28,861 bases of DNA from a virus. The position numbers and the translations under genes were made by a program. Shown here in pieces: positions 14,939 through 28,861 of the stretch (position 1 is the first letter of the stretch; each line of letters starts with the position of its first letter). Under the pieces are notes generated by a model, which was not told where the DNA came from, searched no databases, and saw only the letters and a list, made by a program, of their open reading frames with translations. The stretch is from the IMG/VR virus record IMGVR_UViG_3300023063_000037, positions 1 through 28,861 of that record, one strand, 5' to 3'.

Positions 14939-15414
14939 CTTATCGCTAGATTTTTGGTTAAAAATTAAGATAGGTTGGGTATGGGTATCGGTCAAAAATT
15001 TTTTCTATTACTCTATGCCTTATATATAGTACAATTTACTAATAGCAATAGGTAGGTATATTATTATATAAAAACTTAAAGGACAGACTAAAACTACCTT
15101 TTAAGGTCTAAACAGACTAACTACTTAGACTAAACTAAAAAGACTTAAATCGTCTACTCTTTAAATTGCATTAACAAAACCTTGGATTCCATACTATGCA
15201 ATCCTCTTACTGCGGATAGCATAAACAGATAATAAGGTAACCTAGTAAGATTCCAGTGCAAACACACAATTTACTATTATAGATTTCTTTTGGTGCAGGG
15301 CACGCCCCCCCCCTCCCACCTTTGGTGGGGATAGGTCGACAAAGTGTATGAGGCTATAAATTTTCCTGGAAGGTGCGGGGATTAAGAAAAGAGCAAGTCA
15401 GCTCATCTGTAAAA
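14939..15414. other. spacer between trnC and cox1
   Basis: Presumed cox1 leader region. The cox1 frame stays open to about 15004 without ATG. Upstream, a C9 tract and the hairpin CCCACC-TTT-GGTGGG (15315-15329) are the only structures I see. No promoter consensus was recognised. Confidence 0.5.
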
Positions 15415-15498
15415 AGAGATATGGAAGAATCGAACCCCAAATTTTCGATCTGCAATCAAAATGTAGAACCATCTACTGCATATCCCTTATGTATCTAT
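15387..15498 (-). repeat. direct repeat copy 2 containing trnC
   Basis: Matches 730-841 with one difference over 112 nt. The flanks diverge immediately outside it. Confidence 0.95.
15415..15486 (-). tRNA. trnC: tRNA-Cys (anticodon GCA), copy 2
   Basis: Identical in all 72 positions to the tRNA at 758-829, with the same cloverleaf and anticodon GCA. This copy is in the expected place between cob and cox1 and is probably the ancestral one. Confidence 0.93.
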
Positions 15499-15808
15499 GT
15501 TATAAAGTCTTATAACACAAATACATAAGCCTAATATAATTAAAGAGAAGGACCCTTCTTTGCAGTGCTTTATAAAAAATACTGCGAGTATTTAGCCCAA
15601 AAGGTATAAGGTACTGTACGAAAACATATTAATTTAAATAAGGAGCCAAGTAACTTAAAATATGTCTAAAAAGAACTACTTATAGGCAACCTTACTATAT
15701 ATTGACCATCCGAATTTATTTTTTTATTATGCGTGCAGAGCACGTATAATAAAAAAAAAAATAAGAGAAATAATACGAGTAAATATAAACAAAGCCTAAA
15801 GATTATCA
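15487..15808. other. spacer with long hairpin
   Basis: No gene seen. A strong hairpin lies at 15717-15764: ATTATGCGTGC-AGA-GCACGTATAAT with one mismatch, extended by T and A runs. It could act in 3'-end formation of the cob/ORF transcript or be another mini-element. Confidence 0.6.
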
Positions 15809-16207
15809 TTATCTATTATTAGTATAGTGAGTAAAGGCAGCTTGTCTAACACGAGCTTCTAGCTCTTCCACACTTTCAAACAACCGTCCTGCTTGATTTA
15901 ACGTTTCTCGAAGTGGTTCTCCTCGAGGACTAGTTAAATATTCAGGATTAAGCAACTCAATTGAACGGATAGCATTATTACCCACAAGACATACAGTACG
16001 AAGATTTTCTCTAATAACATCTAAAGACCTTAATATATCTTGTAAAGTTTCAAGTTCGGACACCGTATAGTCTAGCCCTCTAACTAAGTTTATAACTACT
16101 ACTCCTACATAAATTGTAGATGTAGTTATAACTAGTCCTCTAAAAATAGCAGCAAATGTAACAACAGCCCCAGTTGCAGCTGCAACTGCACTTGTAGTAC
16201 CAGGCAT
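15809..16207 (-). CDS. unrecognised ORF downstream of cob
   Basis: 132 residues from ATG at 16207 (MPGTTSAVAAATGAVV...). The frame is open upstream with code 4 and overlaps the 3' end of cob in the +1 frame, so an earlier start is possible. Residues 10-45 are hydrophobic (AVVTFAAIFRGLV, TIYVGVVVINLV), likely one or two membrane segments. The rest is a charged helical domain (LETLQDILRSLDVIRENL; RLFESVEELEARVRQAAF), possibly a coiled coil. Arginine uses CGN codons and the region is GC-richer than neighbours, unlike the AGA-biased mitochondrial genes, which hints at foreign origin. Function unknown. It could be translated by re-initiation after cob. Confidence 0.6.
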   Translation of the reverse strand: MPGTTSAVAAATGAVVTFAAIFRGLVITTSTIYVGVVVINLVRGLDYTVSELETLQDILRSLDVIRENLRTVCLVGNNAIRSIELLNPEYLTSPRGEPLRETLNQAGRLFESVEELEARVRQAAFTHYTNNR

Positions 16208-16292
16208 ACCTAATGAAGATGTAGCTTTAAATGGACCAAGTGTAGGTGCAGCTATACCTGGTGTGGTTTTAGTTATTTTTCTAGTTTTAGGT

Positions 16293-16651
16293 TTACTGCA
16301 GGGGACTCACAATACGTGAATTATGACTTGCCAATTCTGTTAAACTATTTTCTAGTAAACTAACTACAGGTACGATAATAAAGAAATGTGCAAAGTAAAG
16401 AACGGTACTAATTTGCCCAAATTCTATATATGGACTCTCAACGTGTTTTGCACCTAATTGCATTAATATTAAGAAATTAGCTATAAATACATAGAAAGCT
16501 ATTTTACTTAAAGGTCTGAATTGTATACCTCTACTTCTACTTAAATCAGTAAATGGCATAGCTAATAATGCTAAGATAGCACTTAACATAGCAACAACAC
16601 CTAATAATTTGTTAGGTATAGATCTTAATATAGCATAGAAAGGTAAAAGAT
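16293..16651 (-). CDS. cob: cob exon 7 (last)
   Basis: Encodes (Y)[19 protein letters not shown] to the stop TAA, including the last three transmembrane helices. Confidence 0.93.
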
Positions 16652-25600: not shown

Positions 25601-26969
25601 ACACTAGGTAATTCTATTAAGAAGGTTGTTATGGCATTTAAACTTTCTTGACTAGCCCCGCAGGGGCGGGACTTGTTTCCTAGATTTTTTTTATTATTTT
25701 GACCATAAGTCAAAATAATAAAAAAAATAAACCTAAGGGGTAAGTTTTCCTTCCCCCATAGGGGGCGAAAACTAGTATTTTTTTGAGCTACTTGAAAATA
25801 CAAAGCAGATCCAGTTTTAATACCAAAAGTACCTTCACCTTCTAAAAATCCTATGAGTCAGTTGGGGTTTATTATAATTTGAGATTTGCTAGTTTGATAT
25901 GTAAATGTTTCTCTATTAGAATTCATACCATTTTTAAGTGATATAATTCTTTCCATTTCAGCCTCGGATATATTTTTATTTATATAATCTTTAATAAGGA
26001 CAGCCTTATTAAAGTCTTCAAAATCTAATCTTTTACTTGTATGTAAAGGGTAACTTTTAAAGAGAGGAGATATTACATTTCTTATATCATCATATTTTTC
26101 TACAATAAAAGAACAACGATCTCGATTAATTTCTACTGTAACTCTACCTATATTTAACTTAGATTTGATGATATTAAGAGCCTCAATATCATCAATATGT
26201 AATGATATTTTTAATCTAAATTTTACAAAACTACGATCTATAGTAATAAGGAAATTACCTTCTGCATCAGTAAACCCTGAAAATCAAAAGAAGAAATCAT
26301 CTTTTTCCCCTTGATCCCCCCTGATTCCTGTAAGGAAAAGGGGGGGATCAGAAGTTGGGGTATGAGACATTTCCTGATCTGGAGCCATCTATATTGGATA
26401 CTTCAGACTTTTTATTGGAAATAGATAAGTTGCTGCAAAGCGATCCCATTTTATTTTTACTACCTGATACACAAACAGATAATAATAAACTTATACCTAT
26501 TAAAAGGTATAGATAATTGACCAATTATCCGTGATTTTTCAATCACGGTTGGACTATATCATCATACCTAGTTTATATCTAGAATGCCAAGCGTGTAGTC
26601 TCTGAAGATCCCGTTAAGGCTTAGGCAAAGACTGAGCTAAACCCTTATCCCTGCAGGTTTCCTGCTGATTGTCCAATATATTATCCAAGGTACGACAGTA
26701 CCTTTATATTTATCGGATTTTCCAGCATATAGCTCGGTTTAAAGAACACACCATGCGGATTTTTAAATATGCTCTACGGAGTTAAAGGCTTCTGCTACAC
26801 TAGGGTTGTAGTGCATTGCAAGAGTTACACCTGTAACAATTTGTATAATTAAGCAAAAAGCTAATAAAGAACCAAAGTTTCATAAGTAACTTATGTTACT
26901 TGGTTGTGAAGAATCGATTACATAGGAATTAACCAATTTTAATATAGGATGACTTTTAAAAATTCTCAT
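16293..26969 (-). CDS. cob: cytochrome b (7 exons, joined)
   Basis: Membrane subunit of complex III carrying haems bL and bH. Exons in order: 26969-26769, 23876-23685, 22330-22295, 21162-21080, 20010-19744, 17731-17688, 16651-16293; total 1182 nt, exactly 394 codons with stop. Landmarks: [59 protein letters not shown] (haem His), GQMSLWGATVITNL, the [16 protein letters not shown] loop (PEWY, Qo site), and [16 protein letters not shown]. It ends after [12 protein letters not shown], slightly longer than usual. Start ATG follows a long AT leader. TGA Trp codons occur throughout. Confidence 0.95.
16652..17687 (-). mobile_element. cob intron 6, group I
   Basis: 1036 nt inside the Tyr codon of PEWY. 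The core is at the 5' end: GTTTGCTGGAAAACCC near 17660, AATCAGCAGG about 17607-17597, ATCTTCAGAGACTATATGCG about 17551-17532, AAGATATAGTCC about 17495-17484. An endonuclease gene follows. Confidence 0.88.
16727..17455 (-). CDS. LAGLIDADG homing endonuclease (cob i6)
   Basis: Open from just after a TAA; about 242 codons with no ATG before the nuclease domain, so the start is probably ATA or another non-ATG codon. An N-terminal hydrophobic stretch ([17 protein letters not shown]) is followed by motif 1 [10 protein letters not shown] and motif 2 LAFWIMDDGSR, the pattern of LAGLIDADG_2-type enzymes. Between them lies [22 protein letters not shown]; after motif 2 comes [16 protein letters not shown] and the usual end [19 protein letters not shown]. 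One linking Trp is TGA. Intact. Confidence 0.88.
17688..17731 (-). CDS. cob: cob exon 6
   Basis: 44-nt exon encoding (M)[14 protein letters not shown] and one base of Tyr. Confidence 0.88.
17732..19743 (-). mobile_element. cob intron 5, group I
   Basis: 2012 nt at DNYI|MANPMQT. Core at the 5' end and of a distinct subtype: AATTGCGGGAAGTCCC near 19690, AATCCGCAGCCAAGC near 19500-19483, TTCATCGACTAAATG about 19421-19405, AAGATATAGTC 19389-19379. The endonuclease ATG lies inside the R-S part of the core. The 3' end (17732-17868) has a hairpin TTTCCCCC...GGGGGAAA (17780-17804). Confidence 0.87.
17869..19407 (-). CDS. LAGLIDADG homing endonuclease (cob i5), long form
   Basis: 512 residues once TGA is read as Trp. 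ATG at 19407 directly follows an in-frame TAA. N-terminal [20 protein letters not shown] and a long spacer precede motif 1 ([14 protein letters not shown], atypical: QAEG) and motif 2 ([12 protein letters not shown]). The C-terminal third includes [19 protein letters not shown] and a CSTCGG element that might bind metal. It is much longer than the 240-320 residues common for such proteins. Because its first 10 codons overlap P7 of the ribozyme, translation and folding may compete. It looks intact. Confidence 0.86.
19744..20010 (-). CDS. cob: cob exon 5
   Basis: Encodes (V)[17 protein letters not shown] through [14 protein letters not shown] and two bases of Met. Confidence 0.92.
20011..21079 (-). 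mobile_element. cob intron 4, group I
   Basis: 1069 nt inside a Val codon (GGFSV|NNATLN). P, Q and R lie early (TTGCTGGAATATCC near 21020, AATCAGCAGGGG about 20943-20932, TCCTCAGAGACTAAACG about 20905-20889), whereas S (AAGATATAGTCC) is at 20104-20093. The endonuclease gene therefore fills the P8 region and also reads through P, Q and R. Confidence 0.88.
20119..21079 (-). CDS. LAGLIDADG homing endonuclease (cob i4), fused to exon 4
   Basis: About 320 intron-encoded residues continuing from GGFSV as [12 protein letters not shown] membrane-like leader and a stretch encoded by the ribozyme core ([20 protein letters not shown]) precede motif 1 [12 protein letters not shown] and motif 2 [12 protein letters not shown]. 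Motif 2 has Ala where Gly is usual after the acidic residue. Ends [14 protein letters not shown] with TAA. Probably a two-domain nuclease; the altered second motif keeps its Glu. Confidence 0.88.
21080..21162 (-). CDS. cob: cob exon 4
   Basis: Encodes [19 protein letters not shown] then EFLWGGFS and two bases of Val. Confidence 0.9.
21163..22294 (-). mobile_element. cob intron 3, group I
   Basis: 1132 nt at MSLWG|ATVITN. The core is at the 3' end, of the same kind as in cox1 i5 and cob i2: AAGACCGTCGG near 21460, ACAGACTGG near 21430, TGTACAGTCGG near 21380. Confidence 0.87.
21578..22294 (-). CDS. LAGLIDADG homing endonuclease (cob i3), fused to exon 3
   Basis: About 238 intron-encoded residues continuing from MSLWG as [13 protein letters not shown] hydrophobic leader is followed by motif 1 [13 protein letters not shown] and motif 2 LALAIWIMDDGSK. 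It ends [18 protein letters not shown] before TAA. It is homologous in plan to the enzyme of cob i6 (compare [19 protein letters not shown]), so the two probably share ancestry despite sitting in introns with different cores. Two TGA Trp codons. Intact. Confidence 0.88.
22295..22330 (-). CDS. cob: cob exon 3
   Basis: 36-nt exon encoding [12 protein letters not shown]. Confidence 0.9.
22331..23684 (-). mobile_element. cob intron 2, group I
   Basis: 1354 nt at TAFLG|YVLPYG. The core is at the 3' end (GATCGTCGG near 22500, GACAGACTGGG near 22470, TGCACAGTCGG near 22435). The endonuclease gene occupies the 5' two thirds. Confidence 0.87.
22749..23684 (-). CDS. GIY-YIG homing endonuclease (cob i2), fused to exon 2
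   Basis: About 311 intron-encoded residues continuing from TAFLG as [12 protein letters not shown], with a short poly-Asn stretch. Domain: [19 protein letters not shown], then [12 protein letters not shown], the Glu in [17 protein letters not shown], and [19 protein letters not shown] (NUMOD3). C-terminal NUMOD1-like segment [17 protein letters not shown] with [17 protein letters not shown]. With code 4 the protein extends past TGA (RRRWVVKYV) to TAA at 22749-22751. Intact. Confidence 0.9.
23685..23876 (-). CDS. cob: cob exon 2
   Basis: Encodes [20 protein letters not shown] through LMIVTAFLG. Confidence 0.93.
24086..24128. repeat. 12-bp hairpin, frame-breaking
   Basis: CCCGCACTCATC (24091-24102) and GATGAGTGCGGG (24112-24123), followed by GGCCCGGG. 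The inserted length inferred from protein homology is 43 nt, which breaks the outer LAGLIDADG frame. No 5-bp flanking repeat is evident. Confidence 0.78.
24598..25427 (-). pseudogene. GIY-YIG homing endonuclease of the inner intron, one-base frameshift
   Basis: The leader frame starts near TTG 25427 ([20 protein letters not shown]...) and runs to [11 protein letters not shown], then stops. The nuclease frame continues [58 protein letters not shown] and a NUMOD-like tail ([20 protein letters not shown]), ending ARKKKPRKI. One extra A in the A8 run at 25235-25242 would join them (...QKKILV...). The 21-nt hairpin insertion (25208-25234) is itself in frame. So the gene is one base from intact; a homopolymer miscall is possible. 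Confidence 0.8.
25208..25234. mobile_element. short CTAGT-flanked GC mini-element
   Basis: On the minus strand: ACTAGT-TTTCGCCCC-TGC-GGGG-CTAGT. Target CTAGT is present at both ends, offset 21 nt (7 codons). It begins with the same 16 bases as the longer element at 25651-25776. Confidence 0.83.
25651..25776. mobile_element. long CTAGT-flanked hairpin element
   Basis: 126 nt, same ends as the short element (ACTAGTTTTCGCCCC... and ...GCCCCTGCGGGGCTAGT on minus). Three hairpins: CCCCC-ATA-GGGGG, a perfect A/T stem of about 19 bp around CATAA (25691-25734), and GCCCC-GCA-GGGGC. CTAGT repeats are offset by 120 nt (40 codons). Excision restores [13 protein letters not shown] in the LAGLIDADG protein. 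Confidence 0.85.
26304..26345. repeat. GC hairpin in the N-terminal region of the outer LAGLIDADG gene
   Basis: TGATCCCCCC ... GGGGGGATCA with an inner TTCC/GGAA stem; the frame remains open ([14 protein letters not shown]). Confidence 0.75.
26769..26969 (-). CDS. cob: cob exon 1
   Basis: ATG at 26969; [20 protein letters not shown] to [16 protein letters not shown]. The exon frame meets TAA directly in the intron. Confidence 0.94.
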
Positions 26970-27134
26970 TTTTGTTTATTTAAATATATATATTTTTTTT
27001 TTTTCTAGAAGTCTATAGGAATAGAGATAATATGTAAACCGTTATATTTTTATTTAATTTGTTTATTCTCTTAATGGTTTGATTAAACACAGGTTTTAGG
27101 CTTTTTACTACGAAGCTGTTACAGCTACGCACGT
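26970..27134 (-). repeat. cob 5' leader, repeat copy A
   Basis: Upstream of the functional cob start. About 85 nt (27007-27093) are identical to 28602-28688, and weaker similarity extends to 27134. It may contain the cob promoter or leader signals; no consensus was identified. Confidence 0.85.
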
Positions 27135-27978
27135 AAAAAGGATAAAAAACAAGGGATAAGCAAAACATCCGAAAATTTATTTTTTTATACTCTAGTAGTT
27201 TATGTAAAACTATTTATTTTTTTTCAGTAAAGAACTATAGTTCTTTGCCTAGGTAATAGTAGATATTACCATTACTAATGTGTATTTATATGTATTACTA
27301 TAAAGAGGTATTTTATAGTAATAATAAATCCAAGTAGGCGTATTACTAAAATATATCGGTAACAGGTATTAATTGCATTAAAAAAAAAGATATAATAAAA
27401 AGATATCATCATCAATTTAGAATTTTTTTTCTTTAATTTTATATAAAACACATACACAATTATACCAAAATAAAACTCCTAAATAACTAGCTAAGCTAGT
27501 TAAATTTTTAAGAAGTTAATTCTAATAAAACCCCTTAGAAGCTAACCTTAAACACTATTGTTTCCTTTTTATTAGGAGATTCATCCACATCAAAGGTAGA
27601 CAAATAACTTCTTTTCTTTGAAGCTTGAGATTAAACTTGAGATTCAGCTTGAGATTCAGCTTGAGTATCTAAATTATAGATAAACCCTAAAAAAAAACAA
27701 CTTCTTTTTTATGACTGCTTGTACAGCAGTCCTTATTCCCCCACCCTGCTATGCTCCGCAAGCTGGGTAATTAAGGCTTTTTTTATTATTTTTGAGCCTG
27801 TCGAAAAAAAAAGGGAAGAATTCTTTTTAACGGTAGATCTGTTAAAATTTAATAAGATGAAAAACTACATACATCTAAATGTCATCTTTCCAAATCTTTT
27901 TATAGCGGAGCATGTAAAACAAACATTTCCCAAAAATACGCCGATAAAAAGTGGATAATAAAGCAATATTCTTAGAAG
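27135..27978. other. non-coding stretch upstream of cob
   Basis: Very AT-rich, with no ORF I trust. It contains the hairpins GACTGCT-TGTAC-AGCAGTC (27711-27729) and ACCC...GGGT (27742-27768), and an A/T palindrome around AAGGCTTTTTT...GAGCCT (27773-27799). Confidence 0.55.
27624..27668. repeat. 12-bp tandem repeat, about 3.7 copies
   Basis: Unit CTTGAGATTCAG; the first copy ends TTAAA-like (CTTGAGATTAAA), two exact copies follow, then a partial one. Confidence 0.88.
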
Positions 27979-28239
27979 TTAAATAAAAATAGTGATTATT
28001 ATATTATTTCATACTAAAAAAAAAAAAGATCAGATAAAATAAAGTATAACCGTCAAATTTTTTTGCATATAACGCTTTATTTTATCTTTAAATAACACAT
28101 AAATGACCAAAATAATAATAGCAGCTAATACAACCCTTATAAGAATTATATCTACAGGATGATAACCTAATTGACAAGCAAGTGATATAAAGATAAGTGA
28201 AACAAAACTTAAACATATACCTAAAGAATAATCTATCAT
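27979..28239 (-). CDS. small hypothetical membrane-protein ORF
   Basis: 86 residues with code 4 (TGA Trp twice near the end). Two clear transmembrane segments: LGICLSFVSLIFISLA and IRVVLAAIIILVIYVLF, then a basic stretch KDKIKRYMQK. The frame is open further upstream to about 28333 (HRVDIYFVILVKVWLNRLK), so a longer product is possible. I do not recognise it; it is not a standard mitochondrial subunit. It lies in the block bounded by the two cob leaders and on the same strand, so the duplicated leader could drive it. Low-complexity AT sequence makes chance openness possible. Confidence 0.4.
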
Positions 28240-28444
28240 AGTATGACTCTTTAATCTATTTAACCAAACTTTGACTAATATAACAAAATATATATCTACC
28301 CTATGGTCTAAAGAAATTAAAAAAAAAACTTATACTATAATAATAAATTAATATAGAGCAAGACGTGCCAATTTTTTTTTTCTTTATAAGATAAAGAAAA
28401 AAAACGCAAGGCGTAGCCAAGAAAAAACCTAGAATTTTTCTTAA

Positions 28445-28560
28445 AAGTCTGACTTGTATAACTAAGCAAAGACTTAGTAAAGAACCCATGCTTCAAAAAT
28501 AACTTATGTTACTTGGTTGTGTAGAAGTGGTTACATATAAATTAACCCTTTTGAATAAAA
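28445..28560 (-). pseudogene. cob: decayed copy of cob exon 1
   Basis: Minus frame reads KRVNLYVTTSTQPSNISYFW, SMGSLLSLCLVIQV; compare [34 protein letters not shown] in the real gene. The ATG is lost within an A-rich run and the first codons are deleted. Homology stops abruptly near 28445, after IQ-V. The open frame continues to 28301 with unrelated sequence. Confidence 0.88.
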
Positions 28561-28601
28561 ATTCTCTTTTTTTTTTCAAATTTGCGTATTTAAATATTTT
28601 T

Positions 28602-28731
28602 TTAGAAGTCTATAGGAATAGAGATAATATGTAAACCGTTATATTTTTATTTAATTTGTTTATTCTCTTAATGGTTTGATTAAACATAGGTTTTTAGTCT
28701 TTTTACTTGGAAGCTGTACCAACTACGCACA
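28602..28731 (-). repeat. cob 5' leader, repeat copy B
   Basis: Near-identical to 27007-27134; begins at the shared GTGCGTAG just where the atp6 fragment ends. Same orientation. Confidence 0.88.
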
Positions 28732-28861
28732 TATTAAATAAAGTATACATAAAGGGGAAGTATATTTGTCCTTTAGTAGGGTTTATTTGGTTTGTTACAA
28801 TGCTATGAACAGTAGCATACATAGTTTCTTGGCTAATTGATCAGTTGTTACTTACTACTTT
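28703..28861 (-). pseudogene. atp6: truncated atp6 (ATP synthase subunit a) fragment, 5' end outside the window
   Basis: The frame enters from the window edge: NNWSISQETMYATVHSIVTN, QINPTKGQIYFPFMYTLF. This is the conserved stretch before the second helix of ATP6. Homology ends at TLF (28736); the frame then runs NMCVVGTASK in the cob-leader repeat to a stop at 28703-28705. It is either a duplicated, truncated copy or, less likely, exon 1 before an intron. atp6 is not the usual neighbour of cob in this order. Confidence 0.75.

What the first reader, a model, noticed from the sequence alone, without database searches (positions are those of the whole stretch)
28703..28861. atp6 fragment broken exactly at the leader repeat
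ATP6 homology ends at YTLF (28736) and within a few bases the cob-leader repeat starts (GTGCGTAG). The junction suggests that recombination at this repeat moved an atp6 5' portion next to cob. A complete atp6 must exist elsewhere, unless atp6 is split.
Basis: inference. Interest (0 to 1): 0.55.

Follow-up and report, generated by a model that had tools for sequence, protein, structure and literature searches.

The report
Broken atp6 copy beside mitochondrial cob
In a piece of fungal mitochondrial DNA, a fragment of the gene atp6 is joined directly to an old, decayed copy of the start of the gene cob; this is most likely an ordinary extra gene fragment left by recombination, with the working atp6 elsewhere.

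Summary
The window is an intron-rich fungal mitochondrial contig filed as viral. On the minus strand, 42 atp6 codons (28861-28736) end at YTLF, and 2-3 bases later a copy of the cob leader begins. No atp6 3' part lies in the window, and Rfam finds no intron in 26960-28861. An 83-nt leader core is identical in both copies (0 of 20,000 permutations), while the cob part differs at 18 of 96 sites, with dN above dS, a lost start codon and a deletion. The atp6 fragment shows no decay (dN/dS about 0.1 against a relative). The contig ends 127 nt inside the stretch that an intact atp6 would share. 127 is the last k-mer of JGI's standard metaSPAdes run, so the contig probably stops at a graph branch where an identical intact atp6 diverges. 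Best reading: a young truncated extra atp6 copy joined without visible homology to an older leader-cob duplication. Truncated atp6 and cob copies are already described in Pezizomycotina. A split or trans-spliced atp6 is unlikely. The perfectly conserved leader core is the only unexplained part.

The parts
28736..28861 (-). atp6 fragment, 42 codons ending at YTLF (about codon 105 in contig C173); runs off the contig end
28735..28861 (-). 127-nt stretch expected to be shared with an intact atp6; its length equals the final k-mer of JGI metaSPAdes assemblies
   Evidence: k value from PMC10604447 and PMC10434106
28730..28735 (-). junction between atp6 homology and the leader repeat; 1-3 unassigned bases
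28571..28733 (-). cob leader, copy 2 (upstream)
28604..28686 (-). leader core, 83 of 83 bases identical to copy 1
28454..28570 (-). decayed copy of cob 5' codons (start codon lost, 14-nt deletion, 18 of 96 mismatches in the codon-aligned part)
27136..28453 (-). 1.3 kb of unassigned sequence between the two copies; no endonuclease or intron match
26970..27135 (-). cob leader, copy 1, before the intact cob
27007..27089 (-). leader core, copy 1
26766..26969 (-). first exon of the apparently intact, intron-rich cob

Best explanation
This is an extra, truncated copy of atp6 in a fungal (Pezizomycotina-like) mitochondrial genome, not the working gene. First, the cob leader with about 43 codons of cob was duplicated next to cob, and one copy decayed (shown by the two copies). 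Later a piece of atp6 was joined to the 5' edge of that copy by non-homologous joining or template switching (inferred). The fragment is still near-identical to an intact atp6 elsewhere (inferred from lack of decay and from the contig ending exactly one 127-mer into the shared stretch). It is read for 10 more codons and then stops, and probably has no function.
For: ATP6 identity and sharp end. No atp6 3' part in the window: best of 16 tblastn matches from 2 queries has E 0.059, and Pfam at E<=10 finds only this place. Two misfiled fungal mt contigs, L003 and C173, have intact atp6 continuing IFIL after YTLF, the first base A shared and the second different, giving 127 shared bases to the contig end. 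JGI metaSPAdes uses k up to 127. atp6 dN/dS 0.129/1.227 against L003, with no excess of amino-acid changes over the relatives. cob copy 2 is dead. Truncated extra atp6 and cob copies are described in S. borealis, B. fuckeliana, C. camelliae and P. fijiensis.
Against: No intact atp6 of this organism was found: its record is only 28,861 bases, and 4 of 4 viral-contig scans found nothing related. That this contig was assembled by JGI metaSPAdes with k 127 is assumed. A low-coverage chimaeric junction cannot be excluded without reads.
Confidence: 0.72

Rival explanations
1. Element insertion with N-terminal duplication, as proposed in Tremella: a mobile element carrying a leader and cob start entered cob at about codon 43, displacing the old start upstream (copy 2), and a further gene fragment (atp6) came the same way.
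For: The layout old N-part / 1.3 kb / new N-part / rest of gene matches the D-type genes described in PMC7315562, where truncated copies of two genes may be stacked in one intron.
Against: No homing endonuclease or intron match in the 1.3 kb. Copy divergence has dN above dS, not that of two genes diverged under selection. Codon 43 is not among the cob intron sites of the S. borealis table.
Confidence: 0.3
2. Assembly chimaera or a rare recombinant molecule (heteroplasmy) rather than the main mitochondrial genome.
For: The junction lies one k-mer from the contig end, where the graph would branch. Two direct repeats with an identical core, 1.6 kb apart, could also recombine.
Against: metaSPAdes joins bases only where reads give overlapping k-mers (general knowledge); the atp6 part is followed by 28.7 kb of consistent mt sequence.
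Confidence: 0.13
3. atp6 is really split: YTLF is an exon end and an intron (GTGCG looks like a group II start) or trans-splicing joins it to a 3' part elsewhere.
For: GTGCG is the recalled 5' consensus of group II introns, and the fragment shows no decay.
Against: No group I or II match in 26960-28861 at E<=5. The same GTGCG stands before the cob leader with no atp6 exon. No 3' exon in the window. Published atp6 introns of Helotiales lie at codons 24 and 113, and by length I estimate that 113 is about 13 codons further on.
Confidence: 0.05

Closest known systems
Truncated extra atp6 copies of Sclerotinia borealis and Botryotinia fuckeliana mtDNA (PMC4162613, passages and section 13 read)
   Same: Partial atp6 copy in addition to an intact one; the S. 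borealis copy is an internal 183-bp piece
   Different: In S. borealis the copy is 80% identical and follows the intact gene; here it is undecayed and abuts a cob leader copy
Truncated cob, atp8 and atp9 copies of Ciborinia camelliae (PMC10512376, passages read)
   Same: A 68-aa cob-like piece with 80% identity; the divergence is like that of copy 2 here
   Different: It lies between cox3 and rnl, not beside cob, and no leader is described in the passages read
N-terminal duplications of host genes in Tremella fuciformis (PMC7315562, sections 8 and 12 and passages read)
   Same: Displaced N-terminal part, inserted stretch, second N-terminal part and rest of gene, including a cob case
   Different: Here no endonuclease or intron is recognised between the parts, and the copy includes the leader
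Truncated conserved genes of Pseudocercospora fijiensis and other Mycosphaerellaceae (PMC7999263, passages read)
   Same: Two truncated atp6 copies, one truncated cob copy, intact genes also present
   Different: No atp6-to-cob-leader junction is described in the passages read

Membership tests
Truncated extra copy of a mitochondrial gene | Homology covers only part of the gene and stops abruptly | tested here: met
   atp6 homology ends at 28736/28735 at protein and DNA level
Truncated extra copy of a mitochondrial gene | An intact copy exists in the same genome | tested here: inconclusive
   Only indirect: 127-nt distance to contig end and lack of decay; the record holds no other atp6
Truncated extra copy of a mitochondrial gene | No intron or second exon nearby that would complete the gene | tested here: met
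   No 3' part in 28,861 bases, no intron match in 26960-28861
Group I or II intron-split atp6 | Recognisable intron core after the exon | tested here: not met
   cmscan, E<=5, 3 matches, all chance-level miRNA families
N-terminal duplication element (Tremella type) | Old N-part, inserted stretch, new N-part in series | tested here: met
   cob copy 2, 1.3 kb, cob copy 1
N-terminal duplication element (Tremella type) | Mobile intron or endonuclease in the inserted stretch | tested here: not met
   5 ORFs in or overlapping the stretch scanned, none matches an endonuclease; no intron

The most novel reading that the evidence does not exclude
The 83-nt leader core is a working cis element (promoter, RNA-processing site or recombination site) kept identical in both copies by selection or by continuing gene conversion, while everything downstream in copy 2 decays. 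It would then be a live recombination point in this mtDNA: it would release the 1.6 kb between the copies as a circle and could have captured the atp6 fragment.
Probability: 0.22. Interest if true: 0.45.

Novelty: new member of a known kind. Interest (0 to 1): 0.25.

Why it matters
It shows one of the routes by which fungal mitochondrial genomes fill with gene fragments, with two events of different age side by side. It warns that partial atp6 or cob sequences must not be read as split genes, and that fungal mtDNA is filed as virus or bacterium in public collections. The conserved leader core would be a handle on poorly known mitochondrial promoters or recombination sites of filamentous fungi.

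Tried and rejected
Group II start GTGCG as an intron boundary: rejected, since the same motif starts the leader before cob without an atp6 exon and no intron core follows. Leader as a structured RNA: minimum free energies are ordinary for the composition (z -0.27 and -1.23), and Rfam finds nothing. Leader core as a known promoter: the Neurospora consensus occurs 9 times against 8.97 expected, one of these at the edge of copy 2 but not in copy 1; the entomopathogen consensus, with up to 2 mismatches, occurs 72 times against 65.5 expected and not in the core. Both consensus strings come from PMC8979003 (passages). Relatives in viral contigs: 4 scans, none gave a locus. Leader in G001, the genome holding C173: no match beyond chance (8 matches, best E 0.024, none on contig C173). 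The 1.3 kb stretch against C173 and L003: 0 hits from 19 ORFs. Paper searches for this junction: (0 papers); some searches listed only the general literature cited here or papers on other subjects, judged from the listings except where passages are cited.

Full report
What the window is. The record is listed as a virus record of 28,861 bases, but it carries cox1 and an apparently intact cob on the minus strand, split by many introns. Rfam gives seven group I introns at E 3.1e-6 or better, five of them over the gathering score. LAGLIDADG and GIY-YIG reading frames are present. tblastn with proteins of a fungal mt contig places cob pieces in order from 27005 down to 16323, and cox1 pieces from 14950 down to 6011. 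It is therefore a fungal mitochondrial contig, filed wrongly. The order cob, trnC-like, cox1 and the sequence similarity point to Pezizomycotina; that placement is my inference, partly from recalled gene orders, since no taxonomic search against fungi was possible.

The observation. Minus strand 28861-28736 encodes 42 residues that match ATP6: Pfam E 6.5e-5, under the curated cut-off; yeast ATP6 E 1.4e-5; 76% identity to L003 and 67% to C173. L003 and C173 are fungal mt contigs that I found inside a Tolypothrix and an Atribacteria assembly. Both continue after YTLF as IFIL..., that is ATA or ATT. The window reads AAT ATG TGC GTA and stops ten codons after YTLF. DNA alignments to both relatives end at 28735. 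The leader repeat starts at 28733-28730.

The repeat. The two copies align over about 280-300 nt (81% identity, E 2e-77): copy 2 at 28733-28454 and copy 1 at 27135-26841. They hold the leader and the first cob codons. An 83-nt core (28686-28604 and 27089-27007) is identical. The 5' part has 8 mismatches in 52 aligned columns, 6 of which columns belong to the core. The codon-aligned cob part has 18 of 96. Among 279 ungapped columns with 37 mismatches, the longest identical run is 90, and 0 of 20,000 shuffles reach it; Fisher core against cob p = 6e-6. In copy 2 the cob start codon is changed and 14 bases are missing (alignment). dN is 0.229 and dS 0.133 over 33 codons, that is, no sign of selection. 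Copy 2 is thus a dead cob start, recognised as cytochrome b by Pfam (E 9e-4, under the cut-off) and by PDB search (E 7.5e-10). The core has stayed identical through either constraint or gene conversion; I cannot tell which.

The atp6 piece is younger than the cob piece. Against L003 it has dN 0.129 and dS 1.227, the pattern of a gene under selection. Read from the alignment, residues private to the window number 4, private to L003 3 and private to C173 7 (my count), so there is no excess of changes. With 42 codons this is a modest test.

Why the contig ends where it does. From the last base shared with an intact atp6 (28735, A) to the contig end is exactly 127 bases. JGI, which I recall as the source of many IMG/VR contigs, assembles metagenomes with metaSPAdes at k 33, 55, 77, 99 and 127 (PMC10604447, passage; PMC10434106, passage). 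A contig that runs into a repeat ends one k-mer inside it (general knowledge of the assembler). The simplest reading is that the 127-mer is shared with a second path which diverges at 28734, just where an intact atp6 would. This is an inference: I have neither the reads nor the assembly, and the assembler of this contig is assumed.

What it is not. Nothing in the window encodes the rest of ATP6: of 16 tblastn matches from the two 3' queries, the best has E 0.059, and Pfam at E<=10 gives only the fragment. Rfam at E<=5 over 26960-28861 gives three chance miRNA matches and no intron. Published Helotiales atp6 introns lie at codons 24 and 113 in P. subalpina numbering; by counting back from the C-terminus in a 256-residue protein I place YTLF near codon 100, so the break is not at that site, but I did not have the P. 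subalpina sequence.

How it most likely arose. (1) Leader plus cob start was duplicated, with 1.3 kb of unassigned sequence between the copies (shown as present state). (2) The outer copy decayed except for the leader core (shown). (3) A piece of atp6 was joined to the outer edge of that copy; intact atp6 has no leader sequence, so the joint was not homologous recombination at the repeat (inferred). (4) The piece stayed identical to the intact gene because it is young or is still converted (inferred). The layout of the cob part matches the N-terminal duplications of Tremella (PMC7315562), but the intron or endonuclease expected there is missing.

Known or new. Truncated extra copies of atp6, cob, atp8 and atp9 are described in Sclerotiniaceae and Mycosphaerellaceae. 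This is one more case, with an unusual neighbour. I found no paper on an atp6 to cob-leader joint in searches, which cover only open papers. The verdict is a new member of a known kind, of modest interest; the invariant leader core deserves a second look.

Noticed in passing
730-851 and 15387-15508: A 122-nt repeat (98%) holding a tRNA-Cys(GCA)-like gene stands on both sides of cox1.
   Followed up: partly
969-1448: The cox1 3' end is repeated in tandem (1320-1371 and 1397-1448, 79%); the second copy opens a 144-aa frame without Pfam match.
   Followed up: partly
15809-16339: A 176-aa frame just after the cob 3' end without Pfam match.
   Followed up: no
27979-28329: A 116-aa hydrophobic frame between the two leader copies; only sub-threshold Pfam matches, no relative in C173 or L003.
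   Followed up: partly
L002 (JADBKX010000149.1) and L003 (NZ_JACJRE010000084.1): Fungal mitochondrial contigs mis-binned in an Atribacteria MAG and a Tolypothrix genome.
   Followed up: yes
1-130: The other contig end lies in a poly-T/poly-A inverted repeat (arms 6-42 and 89-125), perhaps why the assembly stops there.
   Followed up: no
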